Below, piece after piece: positions 1-9,286 of a DNA stretch of 64,000 bases. Source of the DNA: an uncultured Bacilli bacterium (GTDB taxonomy: Bacteria; Bacillota_I; Bacilli_A; RFN20; CAG-826); the NCBI GenBank assembly GCA_944363565.1, contig CALVUI010000003.1, positions 1-64,000 on the forward strand, in the 5' to 3' direction. The position numbers were made by a program, and so were the translations under genes. The stretch's first letter is position 1; each line of letters opens with the position of its first letter. A model generated the notes under the pieces. It did not search any database, had not been told where the DNA came from, and saw only the letters and a list, made by a program, of their open reading frames with translations.

Positions 1-92
1 CCTAAGAAGGTGTATTGTTTCATTTTAAAAAAGCCAAACAATGTCTAGCAAATTTAAACGTGTCGAATTCGATGCGGTTACAATAACCCTTT

Positions 93-119
93 AATGTATT
101 AGTGCATATAATATACATT
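93..119. repeat. AT-rich inverted repeat upstream of the cassette
   Basis: AATGTAT (93-99) is mirrored by ATACATT (113-119) with a 13-base spacer that contains TATAAT at 107-112. This could be an operator or part of a promoter, but no convincing -35 box lies 16-18 bases upstream of the TATAAT. No gene is visible between 1 and 274. Confidence 0.3.
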
Positions 120-156
120 GTGTATTAACGGCAAATTGCACACAACTTAGTTAAAT

Positions 157-186
157 AGGATTGATACAAAATATCAGTCCTTTTTC
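157..186 (+). terminator. Rho-independent terminator of a gene left of the window
   Basis: A 10-bp stem (157-166 with 172-181, one G-T pair) has the loop CAAAA and is followed by a run of T. It would end a rightward transcript entering from outside the window and insulate the gene at 275. Confidence 0.6.
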
Positions 187-274
187 TTATTTCAACACTT
201 TTTCCTTCTTGTGTTGTTCATAGTGTCTATTCCAATTGATAGATTGTTTGTGTCAGCTCAAGGAGGAAAAAGAA

Positions 275-628
275 ATGAATACTGATAAAACATACGCAGA
301 AAAAGTGGCAGCGGAATATGCTCCAAAAGAAACCAGCAAAGTTGTGGCCCTCAAGAAATTAGATAGAAAAGCCAAAATGGGCGCCAATATCTTTGGCTAC
401 ACATTCGGGATTATAATGACTTTATTACTTGGTGTCGGTATGTGTTTCTCTTTAAAAGTTATCGGTAGTGGTGAATTATGGCAAGATATCTTAGGATATG
501 TCGTCGGGGGTATTGGAATTATAGGTGTATCAATTAACTATTTCATCTATAAGAAGATTCTTGCTAAAGGGAAACAAAAATACGGGAATGATATTATTGC
601 TTTAGCAAATGAAATCGTAGAAGCATAA
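275..628 (+). CDS. Small two-helix membrane protein, function unknown
   Basis: 117 residues. The start is ATG 275, preceded by AAGGAGG about 9 bases upstream; an in-frame extension to 236 lacks a ribosome binding site. The N-terminal third is polar, with a motif like YAPKETSKVVALKKLD. Two hydrophobic segments follow, at about residues 38-62 and 70-91, then a basic loop and a short acidic tail. From memory, close relatives in Firmicutes are often labelled dihydropteridine reductase, but nothing here resembles a reductase fold and I give that label no weight. It is followed after 10 bases by a TetR regulator, which suggests it belongs to that regulon. Codon use is strongly AT-rich, unlike genes right of position 1944. 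Confidence 0.8.
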   Translation: MNTDKTYAEKVAAEYAPKETSKVVALKKLDRKAKMGANIFGYTFGIIMTLLLGVGMCFSLKVIGSGELWQDILGYVVGGIGIIGVSINYFIYKKILAKGKQKYGNDIIALANEIVEA

Positions 629-638
629 AACAATAGTG

Positions 639-1211
639 ATGAATAAAAACGAATCAAAATATTTTAATACTGCTTTATTGATGGACGAAGCCCTTCTTCA
701 ACTTTTAGAGAAGAAGGATTTTGCCTTTATATCCGTTAAAGAAATCTGTCAAAGAGCTGGTGTTAATAGATCAACGTTTTATCTTCATTATGAAAACACT
801 AATGAGTTATTAGAAGAAACCATTGAACTATTAAACGAAAGATTTGTTACTTCTTTTCCAAAAGAACTAATAATCAACACAAAAAGTAGAATATTAACTT
901 CTCCAGATTTTTTAACTCCTTATCTTAACTTTGTTAAAGAAAACAAAAGAGCATATAAATTGGTACATCAAAAGCCAGAACTATTTTCAGCTGATAAAGC
1001 ATTTAAAAAAATGTATAAAGATATATTTGACCCAGCATTAGATACTTTTAATGTTGATGAAAAAGAAAAGAAATATGTTTTCGAATTTTACACGAAAGGA
1101 TCATTGGCAATCATTCAAAAATGGGTCGAAGAAGACTGCAAAGACGATATTGATTTTATTGTTAATTTAATCGCTAAACACACATTTGTAAATGAAAAAG
1201 ATTATCAATAA
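639..1211 (+). CDS. TetR/AcrR-family transcriptional regulator
   Basis: 190 residues from ATG 639; GTG 636 directly before it is an alternative, and no strong ribosome binding site distinguishes them. The N-terminal helix-turn-helix is clear at about residues 25-55 (FISVKEICQRAGVNRSTFY, then LHYENTNELLEE), typical of TetR proteins. The C-terminal ligand domain is all-helical and not assignable to a known effector class. The end overlaps the next gene by 20 bases, so the three genes of the AT-rich cassette are probably cotranscribed. TetR proteins usually repress their own operon and adjacent transport or membrane genes. By inference this one controls the two membrane proteins flanking it. Confidence 0.9.
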   Translation: MNKNESKYFNTALLMDEALLQLLEKKDFAFISVKEICQRAGVNRSTFYLHYENTNELLEETIELLNERFVTSFPKELIINTKSRILTSPDFLTPYLNFVKENKRAYKLVHQKPELFSADKAFKKMYKDIFDPALDTFNVDEKEKKYVFEFYTKGSLAIIQKWVEEDCKDDIDFIVNLIAKHTFVNEKDYQ

Positions 1212-1830
1212 AATTAGAGATTTTTATAGTAGAGGTGATATAGCGTTTTATATATCGTTGCTTGGGCCTTTTATTATGGGTACAATTCACCTTGTTTTTG
1301 TCATTTTTAAATTTGATTGGATTTTGATTAATTACTTTATCTTTTCTTATCTCATGCTTCTATTTAAAGTGTGGCAGTGGGCAATAGAAAAATATCACAT
1401 AAAACCAAGTCATTATCTTGCTGGTGTTATTTCGCTATCAATAGTTCTTGCTCCCATGATGGCGGCATTCATCTTAACAATCTTATATAAGGACTCTCCC
1501 CACTATTTTATTGATTGGTTCATTTACGCTTATGCTTTATATGGCACGCTTAAAATGATTTTTGCCGTCAAAAGCCTAGTGAAGAAAGATAAAACCGATA
1601 GGCAATATGTCTTGTCATTTCTTGGTCTAATTGGAGCACTATACACAATACAAATGATGGAATTTAGTTTAATCAAAATCTTCTCTGAAAGTGGAAATGA
1701 TGACTCTATGTATTTAATGCAATTATTTACCCAAGGCGCTATTTTCTTGTTCTCACTTTTTGTTATTGGATTATTCATTTATAAAGCAATTACTTTAAAC
1801 AAAAACAAAGATTGCCGTGGTGTAGCGTAA
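1192..1830 (+). CDS. Polytopic membrane protein, function unknown
   Basis: 212 residues with about six hydrophobic segments and a short basic cytoplasmic N-terminus (KKIINKIRDFYSR). I recognise no transporter signature, catalytic motif or Pfam-like pattern. Its start lies inside the end of the TetR gene, which implies translational coupling. It is followed by a strong terminator at 1888. Composition is as AT-rich as the two genes upstream, so all three probably arrived together. A membrane component of a TetR-controlled resistance or stress cassette is possible, but that is only context. Confidence 0.8.
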   Translation: MKKIINKIRDFYSRGDIAFYISLLGPFIMGTIHLVFVIFKFDWILINYFIFSYLMLLFKVWQWAIEKYHIKPSHYLAGVISLSIVLAPMMAAFILTILYKDSPHYFIDWFIYAYALYGTLKMIFAVKSLVKKDKTDRQYVLSFLGLIGALYTIQMMEFSLIKIFSESGNDDSMYLMQLFTQGAIFLFSLFVIGLFIYKAITLNKNKDCRGVA

Positions 1831-1887
1831 ATTTGGAATTGGTGTGTTGTATCATCTCTGTACATTTAGGCCATATAGATATATATG

Positions 1888-1925
1888 ACCCGCCTGTCCT
1901 AAGGGACGGGCGGGTTTTGTTTTGT
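1888..1925 (+). terminator. Rho-independent terminator of the AT-rich cassette
   Basis: A 12-bp GC-rich stem (1888-1899 with 1904-1915, one wobble pair) is followed by TTTGTTTTG. It lies between the rightward cassette and the leftward DUF262 genes, near the border where base composition changes. Confidence 0.8.
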
Positions 1926-1943
1926 CAGAAGGATTAATGGGGA

Positions 1944-4133
1944 TTAGGAAAGGCCCATCTGCGCGATATATTCCTTCAATTTGACGATCCGGTCTTCGGT
2001 ATCGATACCAGATTCGTTTTGGGAAATGGGAATAGTTTCAATTAAGGAACCGTCTTCGTTTTTATGGAGGAGATAGGCCGCGTTTTCGCAGGTGATGTAG
2101 ACATCGCGATAGACCAATCGTCTCCCTAGATGCTCGCCTGATAGATGGGCAGGATCCGCTTCTTTGAGATAGGGCATGTAAGTGTTCTCCGACCAGGCCT
2201 TCTTGGTTGTGAGGACCGCAAACATATAAGGAGCCTCCGAGGCATTGCCGTTGCTTAGCTTTCCGTATTTCCCGGGCCGGAAGATCGGATACTTAACGTA
2301 GTAATAGGTCCAGGGGTATTCCTTTTTGGCTTCGGACTTATGGATGAAGTCTTCAATCATGGAGTCCAAAACCCCATCGCTGAATGTCTCATGCGACTTC
2401 AAAAGTTCAACCAAGATCCTCTTGGTGTTTTCGAAGCCTTCATTCGCGCTTCTATGAAATAAGGCTTCCCAGGCCGAAAGATTGCCACTGGACCCGACTT
2501 GGTAACGCCACCCATTCCTTTCCCGTTGGGCATAATTGCCGATTGTCATGAGCGCGCAGTCGATTTTGTCCTTGTTGCAAATGAATAAAGACGCAAAACG
2601 GGGTCCGAGGTCGATGTTTTCCAGACCGATGATGCCAATTTGCCCATAGAGCAAGGGATGGTCCTCAAGCCTATAGAGCTCCTCTCCCCGTTCGGGATTT
2701 TCGAGTAAGAACTCTAGTTTCTCTTTTTCTTCCTCGATTTGATTGGCATTAAAATTCGGGCCAAGGGAATTATCGAATTGCCCTTTGACGATGATGGAAT
2801 CGATCCCTTTGATGATTTCGAGAATCCGGTTGTTCTCAACGCGGTCGCTGATTTCGTCGGAGGAGTTTTGGATCAGGTTGTTTACTATTCTGATTCTTCT
2901 GACGAATTCCGAATCCTTGACTTCTTTTTGATGGAGGAGGTAAACGACGATCGCATATAGGAGCAGCATCCGACTCAAAGGGAACTGACGGACCCTTCCG
3001 CTTTTGTCGGCGTAGCCATGGAGGCAATCATCGAAGATGTCCACCTTATCGGAAGCCACGATGATCTTGTTCTCCTCGTGAACGGGACCCATGAAGGATT
3101 CGAGGAAGGCTTTGGGACTCATGGCACCAGGGATCTCACCCCAGCAATCGAAGAAGGTTTCCAAGGTGGCGAGGTTCTTCCCGGCATCTTTGTTCTCTGG
3201 AGAGAAATACGAATGAAGGAGATCGAAGAGATCACTGCTATGACTTTGGGGAGATTCTCCCTTCCGATAGCAAAGGATATCGAAGACGAAACGGAAGTAA
3301 CGGAGGAACTCATCGTCGACGATGTTCTCCCCCGATCCCCGGCAGTAGGTCCATAGCAAATCGGTCCAAGGGCCATCGATCTTCCCCATCAAAGAATCGG
3401 CGACCTTTGGGCCGCCCTTCTCTTCCAAGAGCCTTAGGTTCCTTTCGAGTTCGGCTTTGATGTGTTCGAAAAGGGTCAAGGGCTTGCCTCTCGAATTCAT
3501 TTTGATGTAGAGCTCATCGGTCAATCCCATGTCCTTGATGGGCAGGAAATAGAAACTGATGGCCCCTTGTTTCAATTTGTCCCAAAGGTCGGGCACATCT
3601 TTGAAACGCTCATCGATCGCGTCCAACATCACCAGCATCGAGCGGATCGTCGGATCGTTTTCGTAGTCCAAGGGAAACCAGGCCTGATCGCGGATTTCCG
3701 TAGAAAGAGGGATCGTAAAGGAAGGATTGAATCCCACCAACGATTTACAGAAATCGCGTGAACTATAACGGGTTTCGTAAGTAAACCTAGCGAGGAATCG
3801 GCATTCTTCGTCGGGAACCCCTTCCTTTTTGGCCGCGTACCAATGAAGGAGATAGAGGGTCGTCAAACGTTGTTGGCCATCTAGAGGAGTCATCTTCCCC
3901 GTTTCGTCGAGGTCGCCATAGACGAAGTCGAGGGTCAGGGGTTTCTTGGTCACAGCCTCATGGAGGGAATCCAGAAAGCGGGCCCGCACCCGATCGACCT
4001 CGTCGTTATGACGGCCTTGGGCATAGTCCCTTTGGATGACTGGGATGACGATCTCCTTTAATCTGACGGAGTTGTCCCCGTCCTCGATCTTGGTATCGAA
4101 GATATCCACGAAGGTATGAAGGGCGGTGCTCAT
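1944..4133 (-). CDS. DUF262-family protein (GmrS-like), second gene of a pair
   Basis: 729 residues. The N-terminal DUF262 (ParB/Srx-like) domain is recognisable: VIPVIQRDY near residues 29-37, DGQQRLTT at 85-92, and the downstream KMNSRGKPLTLFEHIKAEL pattern near 205-225. The C-terminal half is long and helical, and I see no HNH/DUF1524 nuclease motif, unlike its partner. The start ATG overlaps the partner's stop as ATGA. DUF262 proteins include the GmrS half of the GmrSD type IV restriction enzyme, which uses NTPs to act on modified phage DNA. A role in phage defence is therefore likely by family, but substrate and activity cannot be read from sequence. Base composition matches the host rather than the AT-rich cassette beside it. 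Confidence 0.85.
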   Translation of the reverse strand: MSTALHTFVDIFDTKIEDGDNSVRLKEIVIPVIQRDYAQGRHNDEVDRVRARFLDSLHEAVTKKPLTLDFVYGDLDETGKMTPLDGQQRLTTLYLLHWYAAKKEGVPDEECRFLARFTYETRYSSRDFCKSLVGFNPSFTIPLSTEIRDQAWFPLDYENDPTIRSMLVMLDAIDERFKDVPDLWDKLKQGAISFYFLPIKDMGLTDELYIKMNSRGKPLTLFEHIKAELERNLRLLEEKGGPKVADSLMGKIDGPWTDLLWTYCRGSGENIVDDEFLRYFRFVFDILCYRKGESPQSHSSDLFDLLHSYFSPENKDAGKNLATLETFFDCWGEIPGAMSPKAFLESFMGPVHEENKIIVASDKVDIFDDCLHGYADKSGRVRQFPLSRMLLLYAIVVYLLHQKEVKDSEFVRRIRIVNNLIQNSSDEISDRVENNRILEIIKGIDSIIVKGQFDNSLGPNFNANQIEEEKEKLEFLLENPERGEELYRLEDHPLLYGQIGIIGLENIDLGPRFASLFICNKDKIDCALMTIGNYAQRERNGWRYQVGSSGNLSAWEALFHRSANEGFENTKRILVELLKSHETFSDGVLDSMIEDFIHKSEAKKEYPWTYYYVKYPIFRPGKYGKLSNGNASEAPYMFAVLTTKKAWSENTYMPYLKEADPAHLSGEHLGRRLVYRDVYITCENAAYLLHKNEDGSLIETIPISQNESGIDTEDRIVKLKEYIAQMGLS

Positions 4134-5842
4134 TTCGTCTCCTCCTTCAAATAGACAATCGGTTCGATATAATCCTTGAGGATCTGATTCATGGCCTCGA
4201 CATAGGCCTTTCTATCGGCTTCGCCCCAGAAGTGAAGCTGGTTCTCGGATGAAGGGGTGTAATACTTGAGGAAGACCATCTTGGTGCAGTAAGGAATGTA
4301 GTTGCCTTCCTTATCCATCTTGATGATCTCGTTTCTTTTGACGTCGAAGGTCGAATTATTGAGGGCGGCATTGTCCGCGGTATTGAGGAGGGCCAAATTC
4401 CCAATCGAATGCATGTACTCGATATTCCCGGGGACCGAGAGGAGACCGACGACCTTTTCATGGATCTCATCGAAACGGACCCGGTCCAACTCCTTCAATT
4501 CCAGGGCGCCCCTCATTTCTCCGACCAGGTCCCCGTGTCCGTCGCCGAGACTTAGGACGGAAGGGATGTGGATCTTGATCCATTCCTTCCAAGCCTCCTG
4601 GGTCCTCATCCCTTCCGATTGCTGGGCGTGGATGTGTTCGAGACTCCAAGTAATATTGTGCCCCTTTTGGTGTTTGAACTTATCGAAGGGAAAGCGTTGG
4701 GCCTTACCGTCCATCCTCCTGACGGATTCGACATTGAAGAGAAGGAGGAGCCTGCTGATCCGTTTGTAGTCTATGGGGTTCTCGTAGCTGAGGTCGGCGT
4801 AGTTGACGTTATTAGGAAGACGGAGGCTCTCCGTTATCAAATCAGAGAGACATTCATTGAATTCGCTTTTCCTTTTGTTTTCGGATAGGGCAAAGATTTC
4901 TTCTAGAGAAGTGCCGGAGGCGATGAGGTAGCCGATCCGATGGTAAAGATCGTGGTCCGTATACCAGCCCTTGAGGATCAGGAAAGTCTGGTAGATCTTC
5001 TTCCAGATCTCATCCAAGGGGACGCTCTTGCGCATCTCGTCGAACTTGAAGAAAGTGTAGTACTTCTCGCGGGTGGCTTCGTCTTTTCCCGAAATCAAAT
5101 CCAGGACCAGATCGATCCGGGTTTGGTAAACGCTCGAGATGCTATTGGTGAGGAAGGCCCATAAGGACTCGTCATGCAGTTCCCTTTCGATGAGGTCCCA
5201 CTGGAGGGCAATCTCTGCTTGTTTCTCCTCTTCTATCTTCGGCCTCCGATCGCGGCTTAGGAACATGGCCTTGACCAGTTCGGCATTGGTGAGGGGGATC
5301 TTTCCGATGTTCAAACGGGTAAAGAGGGATATGGGGTCTTCGCCACCATCGACCTCGTACCAAATGACCTTCACATGATCTTTGAAGGACCTATGGATTT
5401 CCTCCGACCGATTTTCCCGGTTGTCTATTTCAAACCATTTTTGAATGGTCTTATAGGCATTGGAAATGAACCAAAAATCGATGTTTTCGTCTTCCTTGGA
5501 GACATCAAGAATCTTCAAAAACTCCGCAGAACCCGACCTTGTTTGATAATCGAGGGAAAAGGCGGGTTCATGGAAGGACGGATTGACCTTGCTCAGGTAC
5601 TTGTAGATGAGATAGATGGTCGTGAGCCTTTGTTGTCCGTCGATCAGCTCATAATGCCCTTCCCTTTTGGCCACGACGACGGGCTGGAGGCAGTAGTTCT
5701 TCTCCCCGTTTTGGTAAACGTCTTCCAACAAACGAGTCACTTCGACCTCGCCCCAACGGTAGCCCCTCTGGTAGGAAGGTACGAAAAAGTCTCCCGCGAT
5801 ATCCCCAACCCTTTTGGTCTCAAGAACGATCTTGCCACCCAT
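4130..5842 (-). CDS. DUF262-DUF1524 (GmrSD-like) putative endonuclease
   Basis: 570 residues from ATG 5842, with GAGGCG about 8 bases upstream; TTG 5848 is in frame but too close to that site. DUF262 motifs are textbook: VPSYQRGYRW at 21-30 and DGQQRLTT at 68-75. The C-terminus carries a DUF1524 HNH-like nuclease signature: LEHIHAQQ at 401-408, then IGNLALLN at 480-487 followed by N and KR residues typical of the family. Such fusions are GmrSD-type modification-dependent restriction enzymes. The stop overlaps the next gene's start by 4 bases, so the two DUF262 proteins are made together and probably form one complex. A third component or a methyltransferase is not present. Confidence 0.88.
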   Translation of the reverse strand: MGGKIVLETKRVGDIAGDFFVPSYQRGYRWGEVEVTRLLEDVYQNGEKNYCLQPVVVAKREGHYELIDGQQRLTTIYLIYKYLSKVNPSFHEPAFSLDYQTRSGSAEFLKILDVSKEDENIDFWFISNAYKTIQKWFEIDNRENRSEEIHRSFKDHVKVIWYEVDGGEDPISLFTRLNIGKIPLTNAELVKAMFLSRDRRPKIEEEKQAEIALQWDLIERELHDESLWAFLTNSISSVYQTRIDLVLDLISGKDEATREKYYTFFKFDEMRKSVPLDEIWKKIYQTFLILKGWYTDHDLYHRIGYLIASGTSLEEIFALSENKRKSEFNECLSDLITESLRLPNNVNYADLSYENPIDYKRISRLLLLFNVESVRRMDGKAQRFPFDKFKHQKGHNITWSLEHIHAQQSEGMRTQEAWKEWIKIHIPSVLSLGDGHGDLVGEMRGALELKELDRVRFDEIHEKVVGLLSVPGNIEYMHSIGNLALLNTADNAALNNSTFDVKRNEIIKMDKEGNYIPYCTKMVFLKYYTPSSENQLHFWGEADRKAYVEAMNQILKDYIEPIVYLKEETK

Positions 5843-6043
5843 GTCCAAACGCCTCTTTGCAAATACACTTCATAACAATCACCATGATGTTACGAAAGCC
5901 TATGTGAAAGATTACGGACATATGGGAATAATGCAATCCCATTAAGGATGATCTTCACATTTACTTAACCAATCAAGAAAGCATTTCAAATCAAGGCCTG
6001 GATGTTCCCCTCTCCCTTCCTTCTCTAAACCCGGACCTTGCCT

Positions 6044-6049
6044 TATCAT
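6044..6049 (+). promoter_or_regulatory. -10 box (TATCAT) six bases before a start codon
   Basis: TATCAT matches the -10 consensus in five of six positions and lies exactly 6 bases before ATG 6056. There is no Shine-Dalgarno in between, and no good -35 hexamer upstream. If used, the mRNA would begin at or next to the start codon. Confidence 0.4.
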
Positions 6050-6055
6050 TTCCCC

Positions 6056-6661
6056 ATGATCGAAAGGAAAAGGCCATCCTTTGCCCTCTACCTCTTCCTT
6101 TCTTTTTTGACCCTCGGGATCTACGTCCTCGTGGAACTAAAAAACGAGGAAGGGGAGATCGAAGAGATCGTCAAAGCCAAGCTCAAGCTTCCGCCCTTCT
6201 CCATCCAGATCCTGCTCTCCTATCTGACCCTCTTCCTCTATAAGCAAATCCGCATCGATTTGGTCCTCATGAAGGTCCGTTCCGACTACCTGATCCTTGC
6301 CCACGTCGATCCGAGGATCACGGAAGCGGGCTACCGCCGGTGCCTCTATAGCCTCCTTTATACCCTCGGCCTCTCCTCCTGCCTCCTGGCTTATCTTTGC
6401 TACAAACAACACGACCTCTTCCTTAGGGTCCACAAAAGGAAACTAAGGAGCCACCAAGGTGGCTTCTCCCTTTATCGGGACCAAGGAAGGAACGACGTCG
6501 TCTATTTCAAACCCTACAAGAAAAAGAAAAGACGTCCCCATTTGGACTATGGGGACGTCCTCTACTTCAAGGATAAAGAAGAAGAGATCGAAAGGACCGA
6601 AGGGGACGTCGTCTTCCTAGAGAGAAGAACATCCCCCAAGGCCCTGAAGATGAAGCGGTAG
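6056..6661 (+). CDS. Membrane protein with two hydrophobic regions and basic tail
   Basis: 201 residues from ATG 6056; the TTG at 6038 gives only a short non-conserved extension. A hydrophobic segment near the N-terminus (FALYLFLSFLTLGIYVLVEL) resembles the first helix of DUF4234-type proteins, a second lies around residues 46-62, and a further hydrophobic pair near 94-120 precedes a long, highly charged cytoplasmic tail. I cannot assign a function. The stop codon abuts the stop of the convergent ABC transporter gene with no spacer and no terminator hairpin. The start lacks a Shine-Dalgarno and is preceded by a -10-like box, so translation may be leaderless. Confidence 0.7.
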   Translation: MIERKRPSFALYLFLSFLTLGIYVLVELKNEEGEIEEIVKAKLKLPPFSIQILLSYLTLFLYKQIRIDLVLMKVRSDYLILAHVDPRITEAGYRRCLYSLLYTLGLSSCLLAYLCYKQHDLFLRVHKRKLRSHQGGFSLYRDQGRNDVVYFKPYKKKKRRPHLDYGDVLYFKDKEEEIERTEGDVVFLERRTSPKALKMKR

Positions 6662-9286
6662 TTATTCGCTCCTGAGGGCGTCGACCGGATCCTTCTTGGC
6701 CGCCAGCGAAGCCGGGATGAGACCGCTGATAAGGGTGAGGACGACCGAGAGGGCGATCATGATGACGGCCTCGTACCACTGGAGGTTGGCGATGGTCCAA
6801 ATCCCGGTCAAGGAGCCGACGATCAAGTTGATGATCCCTTGGAGGATGAAGGTCACCCCGATCCCGATGAGACCCGCGAATAAGCCGATCATGAAGGTTT
6901 CGGCATTGAAGAGGCGCCTGACGTCTTTCTTACGGCCACCCAAACTTCTGATGACCCCGATTTCCTTGACCCGTTCGATGACGCTGACGTAGGTGATGAT
7001 GGCGATCATGACGGTCGAGACCACCAGGGACAGACCGGTAAAGACCACGAGGGCGCTGGTGACGATGTCGACCATCCCGTTGACCATGGTCAGGACCATG
7101 CCGAGGGTATCGCTATAACGGATTTCGTGACGGGCTTCGTTATCGGGTTTCAGTTCGACCCCGTTGACGATGAGGGTCTCGTCGCTATTCCATTTCGAGA
7201 GGTAGTCCTTGATGTTTTCGCTTTGCTCGGTCTCGGCCGAATAGATCTTGATGTTCTGAGGAAGCTCGCTTCCTCCGAGGTTATAGAGGGAGAAGAGGAT
7301 CTGCTTGGTCCCGGTGGCGGCCGAGGTCATCGACATCATATCCATCGAGGTGACCGACCCGATGGCGATATTACTCTCCCCGTGGTAATCGTAGGTGTAC
7401 ATGAAGGCGATGACCTTGCGGTCCTCCCCTTCCATGTAGAAGCCCTCCATGTCGTTTTCCTTCAGGTAATTGACGATCTGCGAGGATTTCCCGGTTTCGA
7501 TCATGTGCTGCGTCAAGGCCTCGCCATAGTAGAGACCGGTCGAGAGGCAGCCGTAGTTGAGGCCGTCCTTGAGGGACAAGATGGCGGTGATCTTCAGTTC
7601 GACCTCGCCCTCGCTCCCCTTCTTCATGGTCGGGCTGTACATGTATTGGCCGAGGAGGTCGGTGTAGATCGTATCGTTGGGGTAGTAATAATAGGTTTGG
7701 GAAAGGAGGTCGTCGTAGGAGATCTCCGTGACGTCGAGGCTGGGATCGTAGTTTTCGCCATGTGTGACCTTATCCACTCCGTTCAGGAAGGTCTTCTGGT
7801 CCATGAAGCCAAGCTGGGCCAAGTAGAGGTCGCTGATGTTCTTGGAATTGGCGACGAGGACGATCTCGTTCTCATTGGTGGGCAAATGACCCCCTTCGTT
7901 GAGGATGTCGTACTGGGAAAGGATCATGTCGTCCCCGCTGGGCAATTGCTGGAAGGGGGTGGTCAGCATGGTGACGAGCCCCGAGAACTGAGAGAACTCC
8001 GTTTCCCCGAGGATGCTTTGGTAGACGCTCTTGATCGCGGTCAAGGAGGTCAAGGTATCCTCCCCTTCGTACATGGTCCCGACGAGGCCGGCATCGGTGT
8101 AGAGGTTCGGGGTCGGGTCAATCCCGTAGTCCAAATAAATGCTGCTGTAATATTCCTCCGGCATCTCCATGAGATAGTCGACGTATTCCTGGTTGATCTC
8201 GTTCTTGAAGAGGAAGTTGTTGACCCCGCCATTGTCGTTGACCAAGGCTTCGATCGCCGAATTGACGTCGATATAGCCGTCCTTTGTGTTGTTGGCGATG
8301 GCCCCGGCCATCGAAGAAGAGGAAGCGATGTCCATCAGGGCATCGAGGTCATAGCCTTCGGAGTTGACACTAATCGGGAAGCCGCTCAGCATGTCCCCTT
8401 CCATCGAACTGATGTAACCGGTGACGCCGCTGGAGACCGCCAAGACGGCGCTGACCCCGACGATCCCGATCGAGGCGGCAACAGCCACCAAGGAAGTCCG
8501 CTTGGCCTTGCTTAGGAGGTTCTTGAAACTCAAAGCAAAGGCTCCGAAAAGCGAAAGCTTCGGCATCTTGTCCTTCCCGGTCGTAACCACCGGCTTTTCC
8601 TCGACATTATAGGGACGGGAATCGCTGACAATCTGGCCGTCTAAAAGACGGATGGTCCGGGTGGCGTAGATGGCGGCCAGCTCGGGATTGTGGGTGACCA
8701 TGATGACGAGACGCTCACGGCTGACCTTCTTGAGGAGGTCCATGATCTGGCGGCTGGTGGTCGAGTCCAAGGCCCCGGTCGGTTCGTCGGCCAAAAGGAT
8801 TTCCGGATTGCTGACCAAAGCCCTGGCGATGGCGACCCGTTGGCACTGACCACCGCTTAGCTGATTCGGAAGCTTGTTGTACTCCCCCTTGAGGCCAACT
8901 TCATCGAGGGCGGCCTTGGCCCTTTTGGCCCTCTCACCCTTCTTGACCCCGCCGATATTGAGGGCCAGTTCGACGTTGGCCAAGACGGTCTGGTGGGGGA
9001 TGAGGTTGTAGGACTGGAAGACGAAGCCGATCCGGTGGTTCCGGTAATGGTCCCAGTCCCGGTCCTTGAAGTCCTTGGTGGAGATCCCTTCGATCTTGAG
9101 GTCACCGCTGGTCGCGTGGTCGAGACCCCCGATGATGTTGAGCAAAGTCGTCTTCCCACAGCCACTGGGGCCCAGGATGGCGACGAACTCGCTCTTTCGG
9201 AGTTGGCAGTCGATGCCCTTGAGGGCGTGGACGACGTTCCCGTCCCCGCAGGGGTAATCCTTTTTGATGTTATCTAACTTCAGCAT
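6662..9286 (-). CDS. MacB-like ABC exporter, ATPase fused to FtsX-type permease
   Basis: 874 residues. Residues 1 to about 220 are an ABC ATPase of the MacB/LolD class: Walker A GPSGCGKTT, signature LSGGQ, Walker B ILLADEPTGAL and switch histidine in VTHNPE. A membrane helix near 260-280 is followed by a large extracytoplasmic MacB_PCD-like domain, then the FtsX core with three C-terminal helices (about 735-870) and the usual cytoplasmic GVIRSLGGRKKDVRRLF coupling helix. Proteins of this class export peptides, lipoproteins or antibiotics, or act as mechanotransmitters. The gene overlaps a MarR-family gene by 17 bases and has a good ribosome binding site, so it is probably induced by that regulator's ligand. 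The substrate is unknown. Confidence 0.92.
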   Translation of the reverse strand: MLKLDNIKKDYPCGDGNVVHALKGIDCQLRKSEFVAILGPSGCGKTTLLNIIGGLDHATSGDLKIEGISTKDFKDRDWDHYRNHRIGFVFQSYNLIPHQTVLANVELALNIGGVKKGERAKRAKAALDEVGLKGEYNKLPNQLSGGQCQRVAIARALVSNPEILLADEPTGALDSTTSRQIMDLLKKVSRERLVIMVTHNPELAAIYATRTIRLLDGQIVSDSRPYNVEEKPVVTTGKDKMPKLSLFGAFALSFKNLLSKAKRTSLVAVAASIGIVGVSAVLAVSSGVTGYISSMEGDMLSGFPISVNSEGYDLDALMDIASSSSMAGAIANNTKDGYIDVNSAIEALVNDNGGVNNFLFKNEINQEYVDYLMEMPEEYYSSIYLDYGIDPTPNLYTDAGLVGTMYEGEDTLTSLTAIKSVYQSILGETEFSQFSGLVTMLTTPFQQLPSGDDMILSQYDILNEGGHLPTNENEIVLVANSKNISDLYLAQLGFMDQKTFLNGVDKVTHGENYDPSLDVTEISYDDLLSQTYYYYPNDTIYTDLLGQYMYSPTMKKGSEGEVELKITAILSLKDGLNYGCLSTGLYYGEALTQHMIETGKSSQIVNYLKENDMEGFYMEGEDRKVIAFMYTYDYHGESNIAIGSVTSMDMMSMTSAATGTKQILFSLYNLGGSELPQNIKIYSAETEQSENIKDYLSKWNSDETLIVNGVELKPDNEARHEIRYSDTLGMVLTMVNGMVDIVTSALVVFTGLSLVVSTVMIAIITYVSVIERVKEIGVIRSLGGRKKDVRRLFNAETFMIGLFAGLIGIGVTFILQGIINLIVGSLTGIWTIANLQWYEAVIMIALSVVLTLISGLIPASLAAKKDPVDALRSE

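What the first reader, a model, noticed from the sequence alone, without database searches (positions are those of the whole stretch)
1944..5842. Two overlapping DUF262 genes as a candidate two-subunit defence system
Both proteins carry the DUF262 core (QR-x-Y and DGQQRLTT), but only the first has the C-terminal DUF1524 HNH-like nuclease motif; the second has a long unassigned C-terminus. They are coupled by ATGA and stand next to an apparently acquired cassette. In GmrSD one polypeptide or pair uses NTP and cuts modified DNA. A division of labour between a nuclease-bearing and a nuclease-lacking DUF262 protein is therefore plausible and its target is unknown.
Basis: partly seen in the sequence, partly recalled or inferred. 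Interest (0 to 1): 0.55.

Follow-up and report, generated by a model that had tools for sequence, protein, structure and literature searches.

The report
Two-protein GrwAB-type phage restriction pair
The two overlapping genes are a real, widespread two-protein anti-phage restriction pair of a kind first described in cholera bacteria in 2025 (GrwAB), here found as an acquired unit in an unrelated bacterium, so it is a good new example rather than a new kind of system.

Summary
On the minus strand, 5842..4130 (570 aa) is DUF262 + DUF1524 (His-Me nuclease). 4133..1944 (729 aa) is DUF262 plus about 500 residues with no Pfam domain. They overlap by ATGA.

The pair is a fixed unit. In 392 phylum genomes searched with profiles of both proteins, full-length copies of either occur in the same 3 genomes, adjacent each time. 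Of 80 public contigs with the 729-aa type, 76 have the nuclease partner immediately upstream, one is a single fused gene, and three lack room. It is accessory: 0 of 36 same-genus genomes have the 729-aa gene.

Order, domains and active-site residues match GrwAB of Vibrio cholerae (PMC12137116), a two-gene modification-dependent restriction system needing both proteins; TgvAB is a related design. I could not compare directly with the Vibrio sequences.

Most likely mechanism: a heteromeric type IV restriction enzyme in which two intact DUF262 switches license one His-Me nuclease against modified phage DNA. New here: a natural A-B fusion, and a same-genus fusion of another two-DUF262 design. The target and the role of the 729-aa C-terminus remain unknown.

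The parts
4130..5842 (-). GrwA-like protein, 570 aa: N-terminal DUF262 (Q25-R26, D68-GQQ-R72, F174-N178), helical linker, C-terminal DUF1524 His-Me nuclease (H403, N482, N491)
1944..4133 (-). GrwB-like protein, 729 aa: N-terminal DUF262 with intact DGQQR (R89), helical region to about residue 497, then about 230 residues without a recognised domain; no DUF1524
4130..4133 (-). ATGA stop/start overlap that couples the two genes
4141..4147 (-). AAGGAGG, probable ribosome-binding site of the second gene, inside the first
   Evidence: read directly
1887..1916 (.). 13-pair GC-rich hairpin between the pair and the convergent low-GC cassette; probable terminator (T-run on the + side). The number of such sites in the region is not above shuffles
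1..1900 (+). low-GC (31%) block with a TetR-like regulator and a predicted membrane protein; not part of the pair, but marks probably acquired DNA next to it

Best explanation
The genes encode a GrwAB-type, two-protein, modification-dependent (type IV) restriction system acquired by horizontal transfer. Proposed working: the two proteins form an obligate complex through GmrSD-like N-terminal and helical parts (inferred). Both DUF262 domains bind and hydrolyse NTP and act as a switch (inferred from intact DGQQR sites here and from GrwA R81A and GrwB R86A in the paper). When the complex meets phage DNA carrying modified bases, the switch licenses the single His-Me nuclease of the first protein to cut (nuclease residues shown to be present; cutting inferred from GrwA H431A/N521A/N530A). 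The long C-terminus of the second protein is the best candidate for the part that reads the modification or clamps the DNA (speculative). The host's own unmodified DNA is spared because it lacks the signal (inferred).
For: Domain layout. His-Me residues H403, N482 and N491 present in 46 of 46 aligned members of the first-protein family, N-N spacing 9 in 56 of 56 rows, equal to published N521/N530. H403 ends a predicted strand 399-403, as in a beta-beta-alpha finger. DGQQR kept in the second protein in 56 of 56 rows (partly by construction of the scan) and in all 12 rows of the separately gathered set. Model of the first protein matches DndI (Foldseek E 4.3e-7; Z 15.3), SspE (Z 16.2) and BrxU (Z 8.3) over its length; model of the second matches SspE (Z 12.5) and DndI (Z 11.8) over residues 1-497. 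Obligate pairing: 3 of 3 intact copies in both directions among 392 genomes, 76 of 76 contigs with room for a separate partner, 11 of 11 plasmid records read, one natural fusion. Accessory: absent from 36 same-genus genomes. Neighbours elsewhere include type I restriction genes. Published phage data for GrwAB.
Against: No direct comparison with the Vibrio GrwA/GrwB sequences was possible. No phage test for this or any close relative. The nearest relatives found are 56-59% identical, so the target may differ. The GrwB FxxxN motif reads YxxxN in 54 of 56 rows here. No promoter stands out upstream. A remnant of the second gene without partner exists in G081, though it is broken.
Confidence: 0.82

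Rival explanations
1. The first protein is a self-sufficient GmrSD enzyme and the second is a decoy or guard that soaks up phage inhibitors such as IPI*-type proteins.
For: Single-chain GmrSD, BrxU and SspE work alone; the authors of TgvAB raise this for TgvA and those of GrwAB for the pair.
Against: In the 392-genome sample no full-length first protein occurs without the second; a pure decoy would not need an invariant nucleotide site; GrwB R86A abolishes defence.
Confidence: 0.12
2. The pair senses a mark on the host's own DNA (phosphorothioate), like SspE or DndI, and needs a modification system to work.
For: Closest solved folds are SspE and DndI.
Against: No PAPS-reductase family member over the curated cut-off in the genome (one sub-threshold match, 17.5 bits), while all 14 control genomes ring; so no DndC/SspD-type enzyme was found (that these belong to this family is recalled). 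Fold kinship shows no function.
Confidence: 0.04
3. Two unrelated DUF262 genes, or a recent duplicate, that merely sit side by side.
For: DUF262 genes are enriched near GmrSD homologues (PMC4619093, passages).
Against: Fixed order and adjacency across phyla, correlated divergence r 0.89 (relatedness not controlled), a fusion. The two families align only over the DUF262 region.
Confidence: 0.02

Closest known systems
GrwAB (V. cholerae VSP-II WASA; PMC12137116)
   Same: Gene order (nuclease first), DUF262+DUF1524 partner with DUF262+long-C-terminus protein, QR and DGQQR motifs, His-Me residues with N-N spacing of 9, DGQQR arginine of the second protein at R89 versus R86
   Different: Different host and acquisition context; YxxxN instead of FxxxN in the second protein; sequence identity to the Vibrio proteins not measured; target not tested
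TgvAB (V. cholerae VPI-2; PMC11411939)
   Same: Two-protein GmrSD-like system with one nuclease and two DUF262 domains; both proteins needed
   Different: Nuclease-lacking protein is the A component (TgvA VC1767, TgvB VC1766); the GrwAB authors call GrwB and TgvA distinct beyond DUF262
Single-chain GmrSD / BrxU
   Same: DUF262 plus DUF1524 architecture in the first protein; BrxU fold matched at Z 8.3 over the whole length
   Different: Work as one protein species; no second DUF262 partner
SspE and DndI (phosphorothioate-sensing)
   Same: Best structural matches of both models
   Different: Depend on a host phosphorothioation system, of which no sign was found

Membership tests
GrwAB | Two adjacent genes, DUF262+DUF1524 gene first, nuclease-lacking DUF262 gene second | tested here: met
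   76 of 76 contigs with room; 3 of 3 genomes in the unbiased sample
GrwAB | GrwA: QR, DGQQR, FxxxN motifs and His-Me catalytic H and two N | tested here: met
   Q25-R26, D68-R72, F174-N178, H403, N482, N491; N-N spacing 9 as published
GrwAB | GrwB: DUF262 with DGQQR followed by long C-terminus without DUF1524 | tested here: met
   R89; no PF07510 match in 56 of 56 members; profile comparison with the first protein covers the DUF262 region only
GrwAB | GrwB: FxxxN motif in DUF262 | tested here: inconclusive
   The aligned place reads YxxxN (Y209-N213); N in 56 of 56, Y in 54 and F in 2 of 56; whether the published GrwB logo allows Y was not visible to me
GrwAB | Sequence homology to V. cholerae GrwA and GrwB over full length | not testable with these tools
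   The Vibrio proteins were not among the loci reached; searches on plasmids and E. coli genomes gave no Vibrio record
GrwAB | Both proteins needed; restricts phages with modified DNA | not testable with these tools
   Needs phage plating
TgvAB | Nuclease-lacking gene precedes the nuclease gene | tested here: not met
   Nuclease gene comes first here; that tgvA precedes tgvB is taken from the naming and promoter placement
TgvAB | Second-subunit type (TgvA) beyond DUF262 | tested here: inconclusive
   TgvA sequence not reached; no PF25202 (DUF7834) in this genome, but whether TgvA carries it was not tested
Single-protein GmrSD/BrxU | Works without a second DUF262 partner | not testable with these tools
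   Needs an assay; genomic evidence is against it, the partner being always present
SspE/DndI | Host DNA phosphorothioation genes | tested here: not met
   No PF01507 match over cut-off in the genome, 14 of 14 controls positive; genome 95% complete

The most novel reading that the evidence does not exclude
Two-DUF262 restriction enzymes are a general heteromeric design that arose with two different partner subunits (the GrwB type here, and a DUF262-DUF7834 type in sister genomes), each of which has also fused into one chain. The GrwB C-terminus is then an undescribed DNA-modification reader, so these pairs would recognise different base modifications through swappable partner subunits while sharing one nuclease switch.
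Probability: 0.25. Interest if true: 0.55.

Novelty: new member of a known kind. Interest (0 to 1): 0.3.

Why it matters
It shows that GrwAB-type pairs are inseparable units spread over many phyla, some on plasmids, and that nature has fused them. The authors of the GrwAB and TgvAB papers leave open why two DUF262 proteins are needed; a natural fusion and a high-confidence model of the second subunit give concrete handles for that question.

Tried and rejected
Degenerate nuclease in the second protein: rejected, profile comparison finds only the DUF262 region in common and no member matches DUF1524. One of the second-type ORFs (L091) does contain an EH[IV].[AS] string; not followed up.

Fold of residues 498-729: whole-model Foldseek gave no match at E 0.001 or better and the second look covers mainly residues 2-476; a sequence search of the last 232 residues against the PDB found nothing.

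Phage carriage: no match of the 729-aa protein in 50,697 phage records. E. coli carriage: the DNA of one relative (L064) found no match. Known defence names: PADLOC gives the first protein HEC-06, Orf5 and SspE models and the second only marginal matches; NCBIfam gives nothing usable; PHROGs gives no match for the second protein and four families of unknown function for the first.

Attachment repeats: no shared stretch of 12 bases or more between the end of contig C9 (from base 6801) and window 1-6100, so no att site was shown. Promoter scan: not above shuffles.

Correlated divergence of the two proteins (r 0.886, 45 loci; largest of 2000 permutations 0.186) does not control for shared ancestry and is only supportive.

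The plasmid-based set (12 rows) and the 392-genome sample do not have that bias, though the profiles used were built from the loci.

Rows dropped: A1 leaves out L011 (partner annotated in two pieces) and A2 leaves out L012 (second gene 499 aa); A3 uses 55 and A4 45 of the 80 loci; 11 of 17 plasmid records were read (not read: H3, H4, H7, H10, H15, H17). For the neighbour survey 120 of 122 nearest ORFs from 64 of 80 loci were given (left out: a 2,083-aa ORF of L078 and an ORF overlapping the fusion in L092).
Full report
What is there. The window's minus strand carries two genes that overlap by ATGA: 5842..4130 (570 aa) and 4133..1944 (729 aa). The first has DUF262 (PF03235) and DUF1524 (PF07510); the second has DUF262 only. 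A ribosome-binding-like AAGGAGG lies 7 nt before the second start, inside the first gene. No other DUF262 or DUF1524 gene was found in this 1.26-Mb, 95%-complete genome.

Active sites. In the first protein H403, N482 and N491 are kept in 46 of 46 aligned rows, and the two asparagines are 9 residues apart in all 56 rows compared. H403 sits at the end of a predicted strand (399-403) with a second strand at 483-487 and helices after it, the beta-beta-alpha layout of His-Me nucleases. In the second protein Q34-R35, D85-GQQ-R89 and N213 are kept in 56 of 56; this is partly by construction for the contig loci, but the 12 rows of the plasmid-based set agree. So the second protein keeps its nucleotide site and lacks only the nuclease: no member of 56 matches DUF1524, and the two protein families align only over about 200 columns of DUF262.

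Structure. AlphaFold2 gives 92.1 mean pLDDT for the 729-aa protein and 88.0 for the 570-aa protein. The first protein matches DndI (Foldseek E 4.3e-7) and SspE (4.0e-5), and by VIA-align SspE Z 16.2 (rmsd 18.3, 372 aligned), DndI 15.3 (10.8, 444), BrxU 8.3 (16.4, 375) across its length; the large rmsd values suggest that domains are placed differently. The second gives no Foldseek match at E 0.001, but the second look gives SspE Z 12.5 (rmsd 12.0, 369 aligned) and DndI Z 11.8 (17.3, 313) within residues 1-497. Residues 498-729 were not matched; they were not folded alone, so nothing is claimed about their novelty.

Do the genes belong together? Yes. (a) Profiles of both families were run on the same-sized sample of 392 genomes of the phylum. 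Full-length second-type hits (over 300 bits) occur in G000, G275 and G451, plus a stop-interrupted remnant in G081 (183 bits, positions 315-696 of the model); full-length first-type hits (over 300 bits) occur in G000, G275 and G451 only; all three are adjacent. The other 31 genomes with first-type matches have at most about 91 bits, in the N-terminal DUF262 region. (b) Public contigs: of 80 loci found with the second-type profile, 76 have a first-type gene directly upstream on the same strand, with -209 to +14 nt between ORF ends (in L024 and L058 the partner is broken into two frames, and several partners are cut by contig ends); L042 and L097 start at the contig edge, L030 has 600 nt of room, and L092 is a single fused ORF. 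(c) Plasmids: 17 records match; in 11 of 11 read, a DUF262 gene lies within 100 nt upstream (in L011 it is annotated in two pieces). (d) Fusion: in L092 (Victivallis MAG) one open frame of 1,262 aa runs DUF262, EHIF nuclease-type motif, then the second-type protein.

Is it accessory? The 729-aa gene is absent from all 36 same-genus genomes and found in 2 of the 97 genomes searched, the window's own included; it is in 4 of 392 genomes of the phylum sample, remnant included. In the relative G007 the order argS, fba, cysQ, fprA, NifU-like, HTH, MarR, ABC transporter and the gene matching window 6038-6661 is the same as in the window, but what follows is a zinc-ribbon membrane gene, five tRNA genes and pgi, with no DUF262 gene (gene names are my reading of the translations). 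In the window's genome the same five tRNA genes lie at the end of the 7.7-kb contig C9, followed by 388 bp of 37% GC, and contig C3 (the window) starts with 1.9 kb of 31% GC before the pair. The simplest reading is an island inserted near this tRNA array; that C9 and C3 join is inferred, and no att repeat was found.

Neighbourhood elsewhere. Among 120 nearest-neighbour ORFs of 64 loci, 7 match HSDR_N, 8 SWI2_SNF2 and 8 ResIII, 4 type I specificity (Methylase_S), 4 WYL. A Qat system lies downstream on the Hymenobacter plasmid. This fits defence islands and embedding in type I restriction loci, as published for tgvAB. The window's own genome has no HsdR_N gene.

Comparison with what is known. 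GrwAB (PMC12137116; abstract, outline, section 11 in full, other passages read) is a two-gene system: GrwA with DUF262 and DUF1524, GrwB with DUF262 and unknown C-terminal domains; both needed; GrwA R81A, H431A, N521A, N530A and GrwB R86A all abolish defence; it acts on phages with 7-deazaguanine or sugar-modified cytosines and escapers mutate DpdA; 471 hits, about 1% of genomes. The pair here has the same order, the same domain plan, the equivalent residues, and a similar frequency (3 of 392 intact). TgvAB (PMC11411939, passages read) has the nuclease protein as its B component. PMC12409362 (passages read) states that TgvAB and GrwAB are unusual two-protein systems and that the difference awaits study. 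PMC10952713 and PMC4619093 were read in passages only. A direct comparison with the Vibrio proteins could not be made, so membership rests on architecture, residues and pairing. PMC full-text searches for 'GrwAB', 'TgvAB', DUF262 with DUF1524, HEC-05/HEC-06, and GmrSD with two-protein or heterodimer listed no paper that I recognised as a further two-protein DUF262 pair of this kind; most listed papers were seen as listings only, and most subscription papers and preprints are outside that library.

How it most likely works. Shown here: two intact DUF262 sites, one intact His-Me nuclease, obligate pairing, a natural fusion, accessory distribution. Taken from the GrwAB paper: need for both proteins and for all these residues; modified-DNA targets. 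Inferred: complex formation, NTP-gated licensing of the nuclease, a DNA- or modification-reading role for the second protein's C-terminus, and the same target class in this host.

Extra point. Two same-genus genomes (G002, G035) encode a 1,030/1,007-aa protein with DUF262-DUF7834-DUF262-DUF1524, and a same-order genome (G069) has the matching two-gene version, DUF262-DUF7834 (421 aa) overlapping DUF262-DUF1524 (626 aa) (Pfam was run on the G002 protein, the G035 one is 89% identical and matches DUF7834). This is the nuclease-last order of TgvAB; whether TgvA carries DUF7834 was not tested. So two different nuclease-lacking partners, each seen both as a separate gene and fused, go with a DUF262-DUF1524 enzyme.

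Verdict. Real, ordinary in kind, well supported: a new member of the GrwAB kind of type IV restriction systems.

Noticed in passing
L102 94..3186 (G002:C10) and L103 97..3120 (G035:C25), same genus: Single proteins of 1,030 and 1,007 aa with two DUF262 domains, DUF7834 between them and a C-terminal DUF1524: a one-chain version of a two-DUF262 restriction system, in nuclease-last order.
   Followed up: partly
L101 165..1430 and 1414..3294 (G069:C9): Two overlapping genes, DUF262-DUF7834 (421 aa) then DUF262-DUF1524 (626 aa), the two-gene form of the fusion above and in TgvAB-like order.
   Followed up: partly
L092 1878..5666 (Victivallis MAG): One open frame of 1,262 aa that joins a first-type and a second-type protein: a natural fusion of the pair.
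   Followed up: yes
G000:C9 (L140) 6848-7296 and window 1-1900: Five tRNA genes (Val, Tyr, Gln, Lys, Leu) near the end of contig C9 are followed by low-GC DNA; the window's contig begins with low-GC DNA. Probably one island at a tRNA array, split by the assembly.
   Followed up: partly
L111 3446-4696 (G081:C33): A decayed copy of the second gene (stop inside, broken into pieces) without its nuclease partner in a same-order genome.
   Followed up: partly
window 236-1830: Low-GC cassette: small unknown protein, TetR-type regulator (TetR_C_8) and a predicted membrane protein; no defence match beyond a marginal one to a mad1 model.
   Followed up: partly
L018 10282-12108 (Entomospira culicis 28-kb plasmid): A third DUF262 gene lies on the opposite strand right after the pair.
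   Followed up: no
L091 7950-9902: The second-type protein here (650 aa) contains an EH[IV].[AS] string, unlike the other second-type ORFs scanned; possibly chance.
   Followed up: no
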